Below the pieces are notes generated by a model that was not told where the DNA came from, searched no databases, and worked only from the letters and a program-made list of their open reading frames with translations. Below, in pieces: positions 1-19,082 of a stretch of DNA of 64,000 nucleotides (positions are counted from its first letter, which is position 1; each line of letters begins with the position of its first letter). The stretch is from assembly GCF_002797355.1 (NCBI RefSeq), contig NZ_KZ454939.1:308940-372939 (forward strand), read 5' to 3'. Made by a program: the position numbers and the translations under genes. Source of the stretch: Bacillus xiapuensis (GTDB lineage Bacteria; Bacillota; Bacilli; Bacillales; Domibacillaceae).

Positions 1-360
1 GAAGTAATTGTTGAAGGCTACTGCATTGCTAATCCCGATTGTAAAGCAGCCAAGCTGACAGAAGCAAAAGCCCCTTTGAATATAGACGAGATCGCCGCTT
101 ACGCGAGAATGGCAGAGAAAATGTTCCGGCTGCCGCTGTTTTATTTGGAATACAGCGGCAGATTTGGTGAATTAGAAGCGGTGAAAGCTGTAAGGGACAT
201 GCTAGAAGAAACGACATTTATTTATGGCGGGGGGATTAAAACGGCTGCTCAAGCGGAGGAAATTGCTCAATTAGCCGATGTAGTTGTCGTGGGAAATGTT
301 GTGTACGAACAGCTTGAAGAAGCGTTGAAGACTGTTAAGGCGGTTAAAAAAGAGGTATAA
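1..360 (+). CDS. pcrB: Heptaprenylglyceryl phosphate synthase PcrB (C-terminal part)
   Basis: The first 119 visible codons run from base 1 in frame 1 to a TAA at 358-360; the N-terminus lies outside the window. The segment holds the substrate-binding elements of the PcrB/GGGPS TIM-barrel family: YLEYSG, YGGGI and VVVGN near the phosphate-binding end. In Bacillaceae the enzyme joins sn-glycerol-1-phosphate to heptaprenyl diphosphate, giving an archaeal-type ether lipid precursor. It lies 34 bp upstream of pcrA, the same pair as in B. subtilis, so the two are probably cotranscribed. No sign of damage in the visible part. Confidence 0.93.
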   Translation, partial: EVIVEGYCIANPDCKAAKLTEAKAPLNIDEIAAYARMAEKMFRLPLFYLEYSGRFGELEAVKAVRDMLEETTFIYGGGIKTAAQAEEIAQLADVVVVGNVVYEQLEEALKTVKAVKKEV

Positions 361-394: not shown

Positions 395-3300
395 ATGATG
401 CAATTTTTAACAGAGAAATTATTATCAGGGCTAAACCCTGAACAGCAAGAAGCAGTGAAAACGACGGAAGGGCCGCTTCTGATTATGGCGGGAGCTGGCT
501 CTGGCAAAACGAGAGTGTTAACCCACAGAATCGCTTATTTAATGGTGGAAAAGGGAGTCAATCCTTATAATATTTTAGCGATTACGTTTACGAACAAAGC
601 AGGTGCGCTCTGTTCTCACACAATCTGATTCAGAAATGAACAGGAAAAGTGAGGGGTAGCGAATTACCCAACTCTATATCCGATAAGAAAGGTGCAATTC
701 CTTTCCTGGACTTGAGGTTGGAAGTCTTGCCTAAGCCCTGCGACGTGCGCTTATTTCTTACAGAATAAGGGTGCGGGAGCTCGCTGAAGACGGCGAAAAC
801 ATAGCCTGAGATGGTTATCAGTAGCCGGGGTGCTAAAAAGATGCTATGCCTAGAGAATGTTCAAGGAACATTGGAGCGAACCTGCGGAGGAAAGGCTCGT
901 AAGTTCGGAACGTGCTTAAATGAAGGCACGTGCCCCATCATGGGGGTTCAGTCGCGGTTATCGTAGGCTGCTTTGCGGTAACGGCATTAATACCAGAAAG
1001 GATTAATGTCCTTCGTCCACCAGCCAAGGACAAAAGGATGGCTGACGGGTCAGAGCAGGAGGCTAAGGCATCCATGTAAAGCTAGGATATAGGGAACAGA
1101 GGAACCGCGGAAGGAAATGCTAATGGGTGTAAGACTAGATGTTCCTAAACAGGAGGAAATGACTGTTGAATCCGCGGGGCAGCAGCCCGTAGTAGTGTTG
1201 AAACAGGGGAATGCCTGTGGAGCGAAGGGGCATAGTCATATAGCTGAAGATAATGAAGGCCGAAGTACGATTAGGAAGCTGCTGGGCGTAACTGGTTACA
1301 TCAATAATTAAAGAGCGGCGGAATATATGGAATTCTGTCCAAACCATACGCTAGGCATATAAATGAGGGAATAACTGGACTTATATAATTTATAATCTGT
1401 CTGCAAATGGAATGGATGCAGGGGCGTTTTACGCAGAGTATCATATCTTCCTTTGGATAAGATGAGTAAGGCGGACAACCTAGTTACTCAGTTTATAAAT
1501 GTCCATCATTAGCTTCACCGAAAAGATCCTGGCTTACAAAAAAGCTTCGGCCTTTCTCTTAGCCATATATGATGGAACGCCGTATGATGGGAAACCATCA
1601 CGTACGGTGTGAAGCGGGGGAAAGGAGCTCCTAACATATTTGGTGGATACCAACTAAATGATGAGGATGGCTCTTACCTATCGCTATCTCGCGAAATGAA
1701 AGAGCGGATCGGCCGGCTGCTGGGAGGAGCCGCGGAGGATATTTGGATTTCTACCTTCCACTCGATGTGTGTGCGGATCTTGCGAAGAGATATCGACCGC
1801 ATTGGGTATAATCGCAATTTTACCATTCTTGACACGACTGATCAGCAGTCCGTCATCAAAGGGATATTAAAAGAGAAGAATCTGGATCCGAAAAAATTTG
1901 ACCCCCGCGGCCTGTTAGCGTCCATCAGCTCGGCGAAAAATGAACTGGTGGATCCGGAAACATTCAGCAAGCGTCAAGGGGGCTATATGGACCAGATCGT
2001 CAGCGAAGTATATACAGAATACCAGAAGCGCCTTAAAAAAAATCAGGCGCTAGATTTTGATGATTTGATTATGGTGACCATACAGCTGTTTCAGCGTGTA
2101 CCCGAAGTGCTTGAATTTTACCAGCGTAAATTTCAATATATTCATGTGGATGAATACCAGGACAGTGCGACACGTTGCTAATTGAAAAGATTAGCCACTA
2201 GCGAGCAGCTAGGAGAACTAAGAATCCGAGGAGTCGAATGAGGGGGTAACGCCCTGAAAGGCTCGCCTAATCCTCCGAATAGCGTTCGGACGGTGCAAAA
2301 CGTCTGAGGGTTATAAGCTCGGTGAAGTCGGTTGAAGGTCATCCTAACGTAAAGACGAGGAAAGCTCTCTGGAGGCAGAGGGTGTGGCTGATAGACCGGG
2401 GTTCTACAAGACAATCTATGGTGAGAAATTAGATGCGGCAACCATCTATGGACGAAACTCCGAATGTACGGCTCTAGAGGTATAGCTATTCGAAACGGAT
2501 AGTCCACCGCGATTGGGTTAGTGAGGTAGAGTAAAATTTGTCATTATGAAATACCTTATGATGTTATAGGCATCATCCAGCTAACAGGGCTAGAGGGGTC
2601 ACCTACGGATTGTGTATGTATAGATAGGATTCTTGGAACGTGGTAAGCCGGCAGCGTGGAGAGTTTGCACTCTGTGAAGCGGTGGAAGGGAAAGCGAATA
2701 GGCGCATAACCTCCTTTATGCCGGTGAAGGTGATGGCACAGTACCGATGAAGCTGTGATAACAAACAGTGGAGGGATAGCCATTAGTCAGCTAGTAGAAG
2801 ATGACATTATTAACACAGAGATTCGAGTGTGAGCATGCAAACGCAAGACATTTCTGACAAATTGTATCAGCTAAGTCCGGAAGGGAATCACAACACTATA
2901 TTCGATATCGGACTTAGAAGCTCTGATAGGCCCGTGCCATATGTCAAAAATTTAATTTACGGGAATGACTGAGTGAGGTTCATACTCATCGCAAAAACTG
3001 TGTCATTGATAATGTCATGAGCTAGTAGTTGATGGGGCGCCGTATGAGATGAAAGTCTCACGTACGGTGCTAAGCGGGGGAAAAGACGGAGATGACGTCA
3101 AAGTCTTACCTATCGCCACCAAACAGAGCACAATATATGCTCGTCAAACTTTTAGCCAGCCGCTTTCATAATTTATGTGTAGTCGGTGACAGCGATCAAT
3201 CCATTTATCGCTGGCGCGGCGCGGACATTGCAAATATTCTTTCGTTCGAAAAGGATTATCCCCAGTCCCGGTCCATTTTCCTTGAGCAAAACTACCGCTC

Positions 3301-5608
3301 GACGAAATTGATTTTGCAAGCGGCCAATGAAGTGATCAAGAACAATGCGAACCGCAAGCCGAAAAAGTTATGGACGGAAAATCCAGAAGGCCGGAAACTT
3401 TCATACTACCGGGGAGACAATCAGCAGAGCGAAGCGCAATTTGTGGCCGGGAAAATTAAAGAAATGACAGAAAGCGGCAAGCGAAAACGGTCTGATATCG
3501 CGATTTTATACCGGACCAATGCCCAATCTCGCGTGATCGAGGAAGTTTTAATGAAGTCCAATATTGACTATACAATTGTTGGCGGCATCAAGTTCTATGA
3601 CCGCAAAGAGATTAAAGACTTGCTAGCCTACTTGCGGCTAATTGCTAATCCGAATGACGATATTAGCCTGCAGCGAATTATCAATGTTCCGAAGCGAGGT
3701 ATCGGTTCCACATCGGTCGACAAAATCTCCCGCTATGCTCAAGAAAATGACTTAACAATGTTTCAAGCTTTAGCAGAAGCAGACTTTATCGGGCTAAGCG
3801 GCAAAGCCGCAAAGGCAGCGGTCGAATTTCGGAGTCTGATTGAAACCTACACTCAGCAGCAGGAGTATTTGTCCATTTCCGAATTAGTAGAGGAAGTGCT
3901 GGAGCGAACAGGCTATCGCGATATGCTGAAAGCGGAGAAGACCATTGAATCGCAAAGCCGCCTTGAAAATATCGATGAATTTTTATCGGTGACGAAGAAC
4001 TTTGAAGAAGAGAACGACGACAAAAGTTTAATTGCGTTTTTGACCGACTTGGCGCTTGTGGCTGATATTGACCAGATGGGCAAAGAAGAGGAAGAACAAG
4101 ATGCAGTCGTGTTAATGACGCTTCATTCTGCGAAAGGGCTGGAATTTCCTGTTGTCTTTTTAATGGGAATGGAAGAGGGCGTGTTTCCGCATAGCCGTTC
4201 ACTAATGGAAGAAGCAGAGATGGAAGAAGAACGCCGGTTAGCCTATGGTGCGTGACGTTAGACAGAAATCGGTTTTCTACCCGAAGGATTGTCTGGACTA
4301 ACTTTTGTTAGTAACAACTGAAACTGCGAGACCACGGTGGGATACCCGAATAAATCCCATGACTAGATGGCTGCTAATACTCCCCCATGCACGGCTGGTA
4401 ACGGCTGTGTGTGAAGCGGGGTGAAGACGCATCGAGTAGCCCTAACAGGTAAAAGCTGAGGAAAGGTATAACACACTGTGAAAGTGATGCGGGCAGGGAG
4501 CTATATATGGTTAGTATTTGAGCAATCAATGACGAACTGCTGAATGTACGTCTCGTAGAGCGATTCCTAGAAATGGGAATGAAATTACCTCCAAAACAAA
4601 TATCGTAGGCTTTGTGATGGATAAAGCTGATGGGTTGCTTTAACTTCTTGAGGAAGTGGTAATCGAGACAAAGGCAGGACCTAAGTATAGTTATACACCT
4701 AGCAGTTTCGGAACGTCAGAAGTCCCTAACGATTCAGTAATAACTCGGGGATCGGTACATAAAGCACCGTGAAAGAGTTATGAATAGGGATGGCAGCAGG
4801 GATGTAGTACCAATGAAACTCTGATAATAAGGAGTGGAGGGAAGGTCCCGAGTCTAATGAATAACAGGTTAAACGCTATTCGTAAGAGAAAGAAGCGGAA
4901 ATCAAAGATAAAGACATATTTTAATCGGGAATAAACGATATTGAAATTGCGATCTTTGAGAAACTGTTAGAAAATAAACAGCATAACCGCTTATGGCACT
5001 TAGTGATGGAGAAACGAAATGCGTACCTACATAGACCCATTGAAGGGATCTCAATAAGCTAAAAAAATTGTGGTTTTCCCAAACTATACCGAACTGCCAT
5101 TAGAGGTTTACGATCACCTGTTCATTAGATGGAACGCCGTGTGCGGTGAAAGTCGCATGCACGGTGTGGGGTGGGGGAAAAGCTGGAGATCACTTCAAAG
5201 GCTTACCTATCACCATTGGGAATTACAAGAGCGGAAGAAGAGCTTTATTTAACGAATGCGCAAATGCGCACATTGTACGGCCGCACGAACATGAATCCTG
5301 TTTCGCGATTTATCAGTGAAATTCCAGAGGATTTGATTGATGAAGTATCGGCTGATCGAAAAGTCAATACGCCATTCGGCTTGAAAAAACAGCCTGCCCG
5401 GCGTCCGGTAGTACGGCCGCAGGCCAACACGGCAAGCGGAACAGCTGATTGGAAAGTAGGGGACAAGGCAGCCCACAAAAAATGGGGGACAGGCACTGTT
5501 GTCAGTGTGAAAGGCAGCGGAGACAGCGTGGAGCTGGATATCGCTTTTCCAAGCCCTGTGGGAATTAAGCGGCTGCTTGCTAAGTTTGCGCCGATTGAAA
5601 AAGCTTAA
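395..5608 (+). CDS. pcrA: ATP-dependent DNA helicase PcrA, split into four exons by three group II introns
   Basis: UvrD/Rep-family 3'-5' helicase for repair and plasmid rolling-circle replication, essential in B. subtilis. Exons: 395-602, 1688-2164, 3120-4247 and 5217-5608, summing to 2205 nt (734 residues plus stop; B. subtilis PcrA is about 739). Joining them gives an unbroken UvrD-type protein. Walker A GAGSGKT and motif Ia ITFTNKAAREM span exons 1-2. Motif II DEYQDT spans exons 2-3. [13 protein letters not shown] and QNYRST are in exon 3. Motif VI region [14 protein letters not shown] spans exons 3-4. The C-terminal [10 protein letters not shown] segment is in exon 4. The start is ATG 395 (ATG 398 follows directly) after AGGAGG at 378-383. 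All junctions are phase 1: GCA-G/CT, GAC-A/CA, TAT-G/TG. Without splicing each exon ends quickly at an in-frame stop, so function depends on removal of all three introns. Exon sequence is not decayed, which argues against a pseudogene. Confidence 0.9.
603..1687 (+). ncRNA. Group II intron 1 in pcrA (no maturase ORF)
   Basis: A 1085-nt insertion starting GTGCG (the group II GUGYG end) and finishing in TAT (YAY). Domain V is the hairpin at about 1578-1609: CGCCGT arm, GAAA tetraloop, ACGGTG arm. Domain VI follows, with basal pairing GCG/CGC and a bulged A at 1680, eight bases before the 3' splice site. A candidate EBS1, CTGCTTTG at 968-975, is perfectly complementary to the last eight exon bases (595-602). 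No reverse-transcriptase or maturase motif is visible; the longest plus-strand reading frame inside (64 codons at 1117) resembles nothing I know. Splicing in vivo would probably need a maturase supplied in trans. Confidence 0.88.
2165..3119 (+). ncRNA. Group II intron 2 in pcrA (no maturase ORF)
   Basis: A 955-nt insertion beginning GTGCGAC and ending CAC. Domain V at about 3038-3069 has the same CGCCGT...GAAA...ACGGTG core as the other two introns. Domain VI again has GCG/CGC basal pairing with the candidate branch A at 3112, eight bases before the end. It interrupts the codon for Thr right after DEYQD, the Walker B/motif II of the helicase. I found no convincing EBS1 of more than four pairs for this copy. 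No protein-coding potential recognised. Confidence 0.86.
4248..5216 (+). ncRNA. Group II intron 3 in pcrA (no maturase ORF)
   Basis: A 969-nt insertion beginning GTGCGTG and ending CAT. Domain V is at about 5135-5166. The Domain VI basal pair is GGTG/CACC where introns 1 and 2 have GCG/CGC: a compensatory change supporting the fold. The candidate branch A is 5209, eight bases before the 3' site. A candidate EBS1, CGTAGGCT at 4604-4611, pairs with exon bases AGCCTATG (4240-4247) with one G-U pair, at nearly the same offset as in intron 1. It interrupts the Val codon in RRLAYVGITRA (motif VI). No maturase ORF seen. Confidence 0.87.
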
Positions 5609-5612
5609 ATAA

Positions 5613-7634
<2,022 letters not shown>

Positions 7635-7646
7635 GAGGTGGCTCTT

Positions 7647-8816
7647 TTGAAGAAAAAGTTGTTATTGGCTGGGCTGACAGCTATATTGCTGGTCAGTGGA
7701 TGCGGACCAGAATTAGAGAAGAAAAAGGAAGTTCTGCAGGGAGAAGGCGAGCAGGAAAAGGCCGTTGTGCCGAATTATCAGATCTCTGATCATTATTATC
7801 GAACACTCAGCCCTTTTAAGCCCGGAAAAGCGAGGGGACTGGTCGTCTCTAACTTAAATACGCGATATGATATCGTGGAATTTGAGACAGGTCTGATGCG
7901 AATAGCACAGAATCACTTTCCTACAGATGAATACTTATTTCAAGAAGGACAAATGCTGGATGCCGATACGATCAAATCTTGGCTGAACCGAAAATTCACT
8001 AAGGAGCAGCTAAAGGAAGAAGGGATGAAGGCGGAGGAAAATATTGGCCTGAATCCGGTGGACAACGGCAAGGGATCGGTGGCTGAACGCAATGAGAAAA
8101 ATCCTATCTATCTTGCCCATGTTATGGAGCATAACTACCTAACGAAGACTAAGGAAAATTCAGTGGAACTGAGCGGCGCTGTAATTGGGCTTGCACTGAA
8201 CTCAGTTCACTACTATACGAAAGAAAAATATGGCGCTGTCTATGACTATAAGATTCCTGATGCAGAAATAGAAAGAGAAGGAAAGAAAATTGCCGCAGAA
8301 GTAGCCAAGAGAATACGCGCGAAAAAAGGCTTGAAGGACGTCCCTGTAACGATTGCTTTGTTTAAGCAGCAAGCCCAGAATTCTGTCGTGCCGGGTAATT
8401 TTTTTGCTTACACTCATTTGGATGCCGGTGAAGACGCCATTAATGATTGGGAAAAGGTAAACGAGCAATATTATTTATTCCCATCCCCTGAAGCGGAAAA
8501 AGATAGAAGAGACGATTTGAATTACTTCTTAAACTTCCAGCAGGATGTTGAGAAGTATTTCAAAAACTATAATGGGGTCATTGGACGAGCTCTCTATAAC
8601 GGTGACGAGCTGGTCAGCTTGAAAATTGAAATCCCCGTTCAATTTTACGGAAAGGCCGAGGTGATTGGCTTCACCCAATTTGTTACCGGACTGACGATGG
8701 ACCATTTCCCTGCATATGTCCCGATTGAAGTGACCATTTCATCTACAAGCGGTCCGGAAGCTTTAATTGTGAAGAAAGCAAACGCGGAATCGCCAAATGT
8801 TCATATTTACGAATAA
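7647..8816 (+). CDS. camS: CamS family sex-pheromone-precursor-like lipoprotein
   Basis: A 389-residue lipoprotein; the counterpart in B. subtilis is yerH, also directly after ligA. The N-terminus is a lysine-rich stretch, a hydrophobic core and the lipobox LLVSGC, so the mature protein is lipid-anchored on the outer face of the membrane. I prefer TTG 7647, because the Shine-Dalgarno AGAGGTGG (7634-7641) sits 5 nt before it; an in-frame GTG at 7638 lies inside that site. In other Firmicutes the CamS signal peptide is processed to a sex pheromone; whether that applies here cannot be read from sequence. A strong terminator follows at once and ends the operon. Confidence 0.9.
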   Translation: MKKKLLLAGLTAILLVSGCGPELEKKKEVLQGEGEQEKAVVPNYQISDHYYRTLSPFKPGKARGLVVSNLNTRYDIVEFETGLMRIAQNHFPTDEYLFQEGQMLDADTIKSWLNRKFTKEQLKEEGMKAEENIGLNPVDNGKGSVAERNEKNPIYLAHVMEHNYLTKTKENSVELSGAVIGLALNSVHYYTKEKYGAVYDYKIPDAEIEREGKKIAAEVAKRIRAKKGLKDVPVTIALFKQQAQNSVVPGNFFAYTHLDAGEDAINDWEKVNEQYYLFPSPEAEKDRRDDLNYFLNFQQDVEKYFKNYNGVIGRALYNGDELVSLKIEIPVQFYGKAEVIGFTQFVTGLTMDHFPAYVPIEVTISSTSGPEALIVKKANAESPNVHIYE

Positions 8817-18820: not shown

Positions 18821-19082
18821 CAACTTAAAAATCGGTAGATGTTTATTTTCGCCTTTATAAAAAAATTAGACCTTTAGCATTCTTTTAATATTTAATATTG
18901 ACTGGATGAAAAAGTATCCTAAATAAAAAAGGAAGAGTAACGTAAATCGATTTATTTCATAATCAAGGGGCTAAATTAAAATTAAACCAATGTTTTCTTT
19001 AGAAGGAAATTAAAACATAAAGTAAAATGACCTATAAAAAGGTAGCTCTTCAAAAAACTTCGCATGAAGTTAGTTGAAGTGA

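What the first reader, a model, noticed from the sequence alone, without database searches (positions are those of the whole stretch)
395..5608. Three maturase-less group II introns inside one essential helicase gene (pcrA)
Seen directly: three insertions of 955-1085 bp each start GTGCG, end YAY, and share a Domain V core (CGCCGT...GAAA...ACGGTG) near the 3' end. Removing exactly 603-1687, 2165-3119 and 4248-5216 rebuilds a full PcrA with no frameshift or stop. Known: most bacterial group II introns sit outside essential genes or carry their own reverse transcriptase. Three ORF-less copies in one essential housekeeping gene imply efficient splicing and a maturase in trans, and make repair-helicase supply dependent on splicing.
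Basis: partly seen in the sequence, partly recalled or inferred. Interest (0 to 1): 0.92.

Follow-up and report, generated by a model that had tools for sequence, protein, structure and literature searches.

The report
Maturase-less introns interrupting repair helicase gene
The only copy found of a DNA-repair helicase gene in this bacterium is cut by three self-splicing-type introns that have lost their own helper protein, part of a set of seven such introns found only in DNA-repair genes, so DNA repair here probably depends on RNA splicing with little or no dedicated helper.

Summary
Insertions 603-1687, 2165-3119 and 4248-5216 match Rfam group II models, start GTGCG, end AY; removing them rebuilds full-length PcrA (TIGR01073, 1187 bits, cut-off 911). 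No second pcrA was found. The genome has seven domain V hits, all in DNA recombination/repair genes: pcrA 3, recJ 1, radC 2, addA 1. In related species introns at the same sites still carry a reverse transcriptase (RT) for pcrA sites 2 and 3, recJ and both radC sites; here it is lost, two pcrA introns keeping RT scraps. The only RT found lies in the addA intron. It is LtrA-like, a different clade from the RTs lost by the pcrA and recJ introns, with changed catalytic residues and no endonuclease domain, its maturase domain better kept. So a maturase in trans is plausible for radC, but pcrA and recJ introns have no cognate one: either they splice largely unaided or one RT-dead maturase serves two classes. 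Each part has precedents (Trichodesmium, Thermosynechococcus, O.i.I2, C.te.I1); the combination was not found in my searches. Splicing is inferred, not shown.

The parts
1..360 (+). 3' part of the upstream gene (read as pcrB; name recalled)
   Evidence: open frame; name from recall only
395..602 (+). pcrA exon 1 (ends in TFTNKA)
596..602 (+). IBS1 of intron 1 (AAAGCAG)
603..1687 (+). group II intron 1, ORF-less, 1085 nt
968..974 (+). predicted EBS1 of intron 1 (CTGCTTT, 7 of 7 pairs)
1575..1687 (+). domains V-VI of intron 1 (domain VI longer than in the other two)
   Evidence: RF00029 56.3 bits
1688..2164 (+). pcrA exon 2 (ends in DEYQD)
2165..3119 (+). group II intron 2, ORF-less, 955 nt; RT-bearing at the same site in G002, G003, G005
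2539..2545 (+). predicted EBS1 of intron 2 (TGTCATT, 5 of 7 pairs)
2856..3022 (+). RT remnant in domain IV of intron 2 (RT residues 3-68, then 564-600 weakly)
   Evidence: E 1.9e-5 and 0.028; E 0.015
3035..3119 (+). domains V-VI of intron 2
   Evidence: RF00029 59.7 bits
3120..4247 (+). pcrA exon 3 (ends just before VGITRA)
4248..5216 (+). group II intron 3, ORF-less, 969 nt; RT-bearing at the same site in G004
4604..4610 (+). predicted EBS1 of intron 3 (CGTAGGC, 7 of 7 pairs)
4898..5020 (+). RT remnant in domain IV of intron 3 (RT residues 42-82)
   Evidence: E 3.1e-6
5132..5216 (+). domains V-VI of intron 3
   Evidence: RF00029 60.8 bits
5217..5608 (+). pcrA exon 4
5625..7634 (+). downstream gene, DNA ligase LigA by reading (name recalled)
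   Evidence: open frame 5613-7634

Best explanation
The three insertions are genuine group II introns that descend from mobile, RT-bearing introns homing into conserved helicase motifs. Here they have lost their RT by deletion in domain IV and can no longer move by themselves. They are removed from pcrA mRNA by their own ribozyme (shown: conserved cores, exon-binding pairs, an uninterrupted product; inferred: the splicing itself). Since no cognate RT remains in the assembly, splicing of the pcrA and recJ introns is most likely largely maturase-independent, perhaps with general RNA chaperones, while the RT-dead, LtrA-like protein in the addA intron is kept as a maturase for its own intron and the two radC introns. 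My split for what helps the pcrA and recJ introns: no dedicated maturase about 0.5; the addA protein about 0.35; an RT missed by the assembly about 0.15.
For:: intron cores and an intact PcrA; same-site introns in pcrA of G002, G003, G005 (site 2) and G004 (sites 2 and 3) and in recJ of G004; five of these six carry an open RT frame of 617-640 aa. Intron 2 is 89.6% identical to the G005 intron over 690 nt, recJ 84.4% to G004 over 674 nt, and then the RT is missing. RT scraps in introns 2 and 3; one RT found in the genome; it is LtrA-like and in another clade than the RTs of the pcrA/recJ-type introns; catalytic residues changed, no C-terminal HNH; identity to its nearest relative with intact motifs (L042) is 0.67, 0.51, 0.53 over three RT regions but 0.75 over the maturase domain; the pair L042-L044 gives 0.84, 0.85, 0.75, 0.84. 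EBS1-IBS1 7/7, 5/7, 7/7 for pcrA and 7/7 for recJ. PcrA against the uninterrupted G001 gene dN 0.045 with synonymous sites saturated (pS 0.756).
Against: No RNA data. Intron 2 has a weak EBS1 (5 of 7). Intron 1 has a low domain I-IV score (42.6) and no same-site relative in what I searched. The second radC intron ends GC where the same-site intron of G005 and relatives L014, L015, L017, L018 end AC, so not every intron here need splice well. The maturase domain also deviates at 2 of 9 invariant columns. The genome is in three contigs, so an RT in a gap is possible. Nothing here tells self-splicing from help by the addA protein; a comparison of the pre-ORF part of domain IV was inconclusive.
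Confidence: 0.72

Rival explanations
1. One RT-dead maturase, encoded in the addA intron, has become a general trans-acting splicing factor for all seven introns, of two clades.
For: It is the only RT or maturase found in the genome; its frame is open (512 aa) with catalytic residues changed but the maturase domain better kept. An IEP with relaxed specificity serving several ORF-less introns is described for T. elongatus (PMC2882425, abstract and passages).
Against: It belongs to the LtrA-like clade, far from the RTs that the pcrA and recJ introns lost. Known bacterial helpers mostly serve related introns (PMC4424553, passages).
Confidence: 0.3
2. A cognate, intact RT of the pcrA-intron type exists but is missing from the assembly (gap or lost plasmid).
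For: Genome in three contigs; sister G004 has an ORF-less pcrA intron alongside RTs of that clade.
Against: Completeness is given as 100%; a search with an RT of that clade at E up to 1 finds only the addA RT and a scrap in intron 2.
Confidence: 0.14
3. The introns no longer splice; pcrA is a pseudogene and another helicase has taken over.
For: Weak EBS1 in intron 2 and a changed 3' end in radC intron 2.
Against: All four exons are intact and in frame, dN 0.045 against an uninterrupted relative; PcrA is found in all 150 genomes searched, this one included; PcrA is essential in B. subtilis (recalled).
Confidence: 0.05
4. Assembly or sequencing artefact.
For: None found.
Against: Same-site introns in four other genomes.
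Confidence: 0.01

Closest known systems
O.i.I2 of Oceanobacillus iheyensis (ML-class IEP lacking YADD, in radC; as described in PMC4424553, passages seen)
   Same: ML-type IEP with lost RT motif and open frame, in a DNA-repair gene; the review (2015) calls it the only known degenerate IEP in bacteria
   Different: Here the protein sits in addA and coexists with six ORF-less introns; a further such protein is in Metabacillus lacus addA (L045)
C.te.I1 of Clostridium tetani (PMC3919590 and PMC4424553, passages seen)
   Same: ORF-less bacterial group II intron with no related IEP in the genome
   Different: C.te.I1 is in an S-layer gene; here four such introns are in pcrA and recJ, and an IEP of another clade is present
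Thermosynechococcus elongatus introns (PMC2882425, abstract and passages)
   Same: Many ORF-less introns beside few IEPs, splicing in trans
   Different: There only a few introns lie in genes, the introns derive from one intron and are described as mobile
Trichodesmium erythraeum introns (PMC4649490, passages)
   Same: ORF-less introns in protein genes; 10 of 17 introns documented to splice in vivo lack an ORF
   Different: Cyanobacterium; help by trans-encoded factors shown by expression in E. coli
Geobacillus kaustophilus recA intron (Chee and Takami 2005; seen only as a reference title in PMC4424553)
   Same: Group II intron in a repair gene of a Bacillales bacterium
   Different: Paper itself not read; intron make-up not checked
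MatK and plant organellar introns (PMC4424553, passages)
   Same: RT-dead maturase, many ORF-less introns in needed genes
   Different: Organelle; MatK serves IIA introns, with many nuclear factors

Membership tests
Group II intron (the three pcrA insertions) | Domain V with catalytic stem and tetraloop | tested here: met
   RF00029 56.3-60.8 bits, cut-off 40
Group II intron (the three pcrA insertions) | Domain I-IV core | tested here: met
   RF02004 42.6, 176.6, 56.3 bits, cut-off 34.5
Group II intron (the three pcrA insertions) | 5' GUGYG and 3' AY ends | tested here: met
   GTGCG; ends AT, AC, AT
Group II intron (the three pcrA insertions) | EBS1-IBS1 pairing | tested here: met
   7/7, 5/7, 7/7; over 8 introns at different sites 18 of 40320 assignments of IBS1 to intron, the true one included, score as high as the true one. 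The search region was fixed after a first pass that gave 307 of 40320
Group II intron (the three pcrA insertions) | Excision and exon ligation in vivo | not testable with these tools
   no RNA data
IEP class B lineage (pcrA and recJ introns) | Cognate RT in the class B clade | tested here: inconclusive
   RTs of same-site introns group apart from the LtrA-like RTs, 100/100 (which warns of long branches); no reference class B protein was in the tree, so the label 'B' is recalled
LtrA-like (ML, IIA) IEP (addA intron protein) | Closest to LtrA among solved group II RTs | tested here: met
   385 bits to LtrA, next 107
LtrA-like (ML, IIA) IEP (addA intron protein) | Catalytic Asp residues (GDIK..., YADD) | tested here: not met
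   GEIQ and YADS
LtrA-like (ML, IIA) IEP (addA intron protein) | C-terminal HNH endonuclease | tested here: not met
   protein ends before it; relatives such as L042 and L044 have it
Trans-maturase system (ORF-less introns plus related IEP in the genome) | A related IEP in the same genome | tested here: not met
   for pcrA and recJ introns none found
Trans-maturase system (ORF-less introns plus related IEP in the genome) | Same, for the two radC introns | tested here: met
   radC introns share stretches of 70-84% identity with the addA intron; RT matches in the G005 radC introns are 40% and 34% identical to the addA RT

The most novel reading that the evidence does not exclude
A bacterium has independently reached the organelle-like state: all its group II introns are immobile and sit in DNA-repair genes, and a single RT-dead maturase in addA has become a general splicing factor for introns of two ribozyme classes, so that repair capacity (PcrA, RecJ, RadC, AddA) is tied together through one splicing protein.
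Probability: 0.25. Interest if true: 0.92.

Novelty: new variant of a known kind. Interest (0 to 1): 0.72.

Why it matters
The review PMC4424553 (2015; passages seen) says ORF-less introns are rare in bacteria, nearly always sit beside a related IEP with C.te.I1 the sole known exception, and that O.i.I2 is the only known bacterial degenerate IEP. This genome shows both departures at once, in needed genes, with RT-bearing introns still present at the same sites in related species. That makes the step from mobile retroelement to splicing-only intron with a shared helper, proposed for organelles and for the ancestors of the spliceosome, testable by comparing a few related bacteria.

Tried and rejected
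Artefact and pseudogene readings were set aside. A second pcrA: none found. Another RT or free maturase domain in the genome: none found. A closer relative of the addA RT in the order: none at E 1e-110 or better in 396 genomes besides this one, a strict cut; named relatives at 55-60% identity came. Conservation of the pre-ORF part of domain IV, meant to show whether a maturase still binds the ORF-less introns: inconclusive, because the window runs into the deletion. The first EBS1 test gave 307 of 40320 because the aligned region missed the intron 1 site by a base; a wider fixed region (331-420) gave 18 of 40320, so the region was not chosen blind. A regular-expression search for domain V arrays in a sister species printed nothing and was replaced by a simpler one. 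I considered that introns prefer genes of their own retrohoming factors (RecJ, Pol III; PMC3636086, passages); the same paper found no recJ effect by qPCR, so it stays an idea.

Not in print, as far as searched: pcrA with group II introns and helicase gave one paper, on plant organelle helicases by its title (listing only); other searches were made, in open-licence papers only.

Full report
Check of the observation. The three insertions are at the stated coordinates. Each holds a domain V-VI hit and a domain I-IV hit over Rfam's curated cut-offs, starts GTGCG and ends AT, AC or AT. Taking them out gives a 734-aa product without a stop that matches the PcrA model TIGR01073 end to end at 1187 bits against a cut-off of 911. 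The introns split three conserved stretches: TFTNKA/AREM, DEYQD/TN and AY/VGITRA (sequence; that these are helicase motifs Ia, II and VI is recalled). The longest stop-free stretches inside are 72, 52 and 53 aa. A whole-genome search finds PcrA only here; its five other, weak matches are three in addA and two in one frame on contig 3.

The genome as a whole. The window lies in a genome of 3.26 Mb in three contigs, completeness given as 100%. It has seven domain V hits, all over the cut-off: the three in pcrA, one in recJ, two in radC and one in addA. Introns with a very degenerate domain V would be missed. Borders: recJ 976 nt, radC 734 and 877 nt with a 63-nt exon between them, addA 2240 nt. 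Host genes are confirmed by NCBIfam: RecJ TIGR00644 for the exon after the intron, RadC TIGR00608 for the exon before it, AddA TIGR02785 with exon 1 on profile positions 1-431 and exon 2 on 432-1232. So 7 of 7 introns found lie in 4 genes of DNA recombination and repair. This count was made after seeing the data and is descriptive.

One RT, and a damaged one. Only one RT is found, in the addA intron, 512 aa. Among solved structures it is closest to LtrA (385 bits; next 107). Aligned with LtrA and with relatives it has GEIQSFF where most have GDIKGFF, YADS where most have YADD, and it stops before the HNH endonuclease seen in relatives such as L042 and L044. Against L042 (Bacillus sp. MRMR6, the closest at 60%) identity is 0.67, 0.51 and 0.53 over three RT regions and 0.75 over the maturase domain; for the pair L042-L044, both with intact motifs, it is 0.84, 0.85, 0.75 and 0.84. 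Against the more distant L046 it is 0.49, 0.53, 0.42 and 0.39, where L042 has 0.67, 0.56, 0.56 and 0.43. Of columns invariant in 16 relatives with intact motifs it deviates at 18 of 91 in the RT part and 2 of 9 in the maturase domain. Its terminal branch is 0.52 against 0.046-0.061 for L042, L043 and L044. Introns at the same addA site occur in L042, L043, L044 and L045 by reading of the flanking frames; L045 (Metabacillus lacus) has a damaged RT too (GEIG, FADE).

Where the introns come from. PcrA was found in 150 of 150 genomes, this one included. Its best match is broken at an intron in five: this genome, G002, G003, G004 and G005; the other best matches that I read in that listing were single open frames of 725 aa or more. 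Site 2 (DEYQD/T) is occupied in all five. In G002, G003 and G005 the intron carries an RT frame of 617-626 aa; in G004 it is ORF-less (893 nt). G004 also has an RT-bearing intron at site 3 (633 aa), another at about residue 197 (631 aa), and an RT-bearing intron at the recJ site (640 aa). G005 has introns at both radC sites, with the same 21-residue exon between them, and an RT match in each. Intron 2 here is 89.6% identical over 690 nt to that of G005, a different genus, but 75.8% over 636 nt to that of G003, the same genus, which suggests movement between lineages. It keeps scraps of the RT, as does intron 3. A relative of intron 2 (80.2% over 637 nt) sits in addA of G018 at the corresponding DEYQD motif, and one in Lysinibacillus xylanilyticus addA (77.7% over 646 nt, first 700 nt compared). 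So this intron family probably homes to the same motif in two related helicases. Intron 1 has no same-site relative in what I searched.

Two intron clades, one RT. In a tree of 41 RTs the 10 from pcrA, recJ and related introns separate from 31 LtrA-like ones with 100/100 support; the LtrA-like rows were picked by similarity to the addA RT, rows under 400 aa were dropped, and the tool warned that long branches meet. No RT of the first clade was found in this genome: a search with the G005 protein at E up to 1 returns only the addA RT and the scrap in intron 2, and the maturase-domain model finds only the addA protein, below its cut-off. Hence the pcrA and recJ introns lack any cognate maturase in the assembly. 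The label 'class B' for them rests on recall; the review places class B only in Firmicutes (PMC4424553).

Signs of function. Predicted EBS1 pairs with IBS1 at 7/7, 5/7, 7/7 (pcrA) and 7/7 (recJ), at intron positions 357-395; over eight introns at different sites 18 of 40320 assignments, the true one included, score as high as the true one (first pass 307 of 40320). Up to about position 600 the core keeps, in 120-nt windows, 0.88-0.97 identity to the G005 intron for intron 2, 0.81-0.91 to G004 for recJ and 0.71-0.82 to G004 for intron 3. PcrA dN to the uninterrupted G001 gene is 0.045 with synonymous sites saturated. Against: the weak EBS1 in intron 2, the low core score of intron 1, and the GC end of radC intron 2 where G005 at the same site and L014, L015, L017 and L018 have AC.

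A wider pattern. Of the 29 loci outside this genome fetched for the best domain V hits in relatives, 16 are in DNA metabolism genes: radC 9, pcrA 3, addA 1 (by similarity), and one each in ribonucleotide reductase, a Y-family polymerase and topoisomerase III (read, confirmed). Of the other 13, one (L031) reads like a cell-wall hydrolase and 12 I did not assign. G004 also has an RT-bearing intron in polC.

How it works, and status. Shown: intron anatomy, intact product, RT loss, single damaged RT. Inferred: splicing; that the introns are immobile; that the addA protein is a maturase. Undecided: whether the pcrA and recJ introns need that protein. I give about 0.5 to no dedicated maturase, 0.35 to the addA protein and 0.15 to an RT missed by the assembly.

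Comparison with the literature. PMC4424553 (passages) states that most bacterial introns lie outside housekeeping genes, that ORF-less ones are rare and nearly always beside a related IEP except C.te.I1, and that O.i.I2 (in radC) is the only known bacterial degenerate IEP. PMC2882425 and PMC4649490 document ORF-less introns served in trans. The parts are known; the combination did not turn up in my searches, which cover open-licence papers only.

Noticed in passing
L084:4686-4756, 6020-6090, 8360-8427, 18949-19024; L083:5910; L085:12171 (sister species G004); also L086, L088, L081, L070: Very similar domain V-VI-like elements in series, at least four in L084 followed by a new open frame starting DGNS or DENS, near surface-protein-like frames. 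Recalls the S-layer gene of Clostridium tetani, where an intron joins one 5' exon to four 3' exons (PMC3919590). Possible alternative splicing of surface proteins; most Rfam scores are below the cut-off. Not among the seven hits of this genome.
   Followed up: partly
L009:4761-5637 (- strand): Second radC intron ends GC where the same-site intron of G005 ends AC, perhaps a decaying splice site; a 63-nt exon lies between the two radC introns.
   Followed up: partly
L045:5998-7500: Metabacillus lacus addA intron also encodes an RT with changed catalytic motifs (GEIG, FADE) and no HNH domain, on its own long branch: perhaps an independent loss.
   Followed up: partly
L043:4437 and the RT frame from 5998: Lysinibacillus xylanilyticus addA carries two group II introns, one at DEYQD and one at the YRFRLAEP site, of different types.
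   Followed up: no
L048 and L049, upstream of the RT: LtrA-like introns seem to interrupt an HU-type DNA-binding protein gene in Cytobacillus firmus and Metalysinibacillus jejuensis (only the L048 frame was checked by family search).
   Followed up: no
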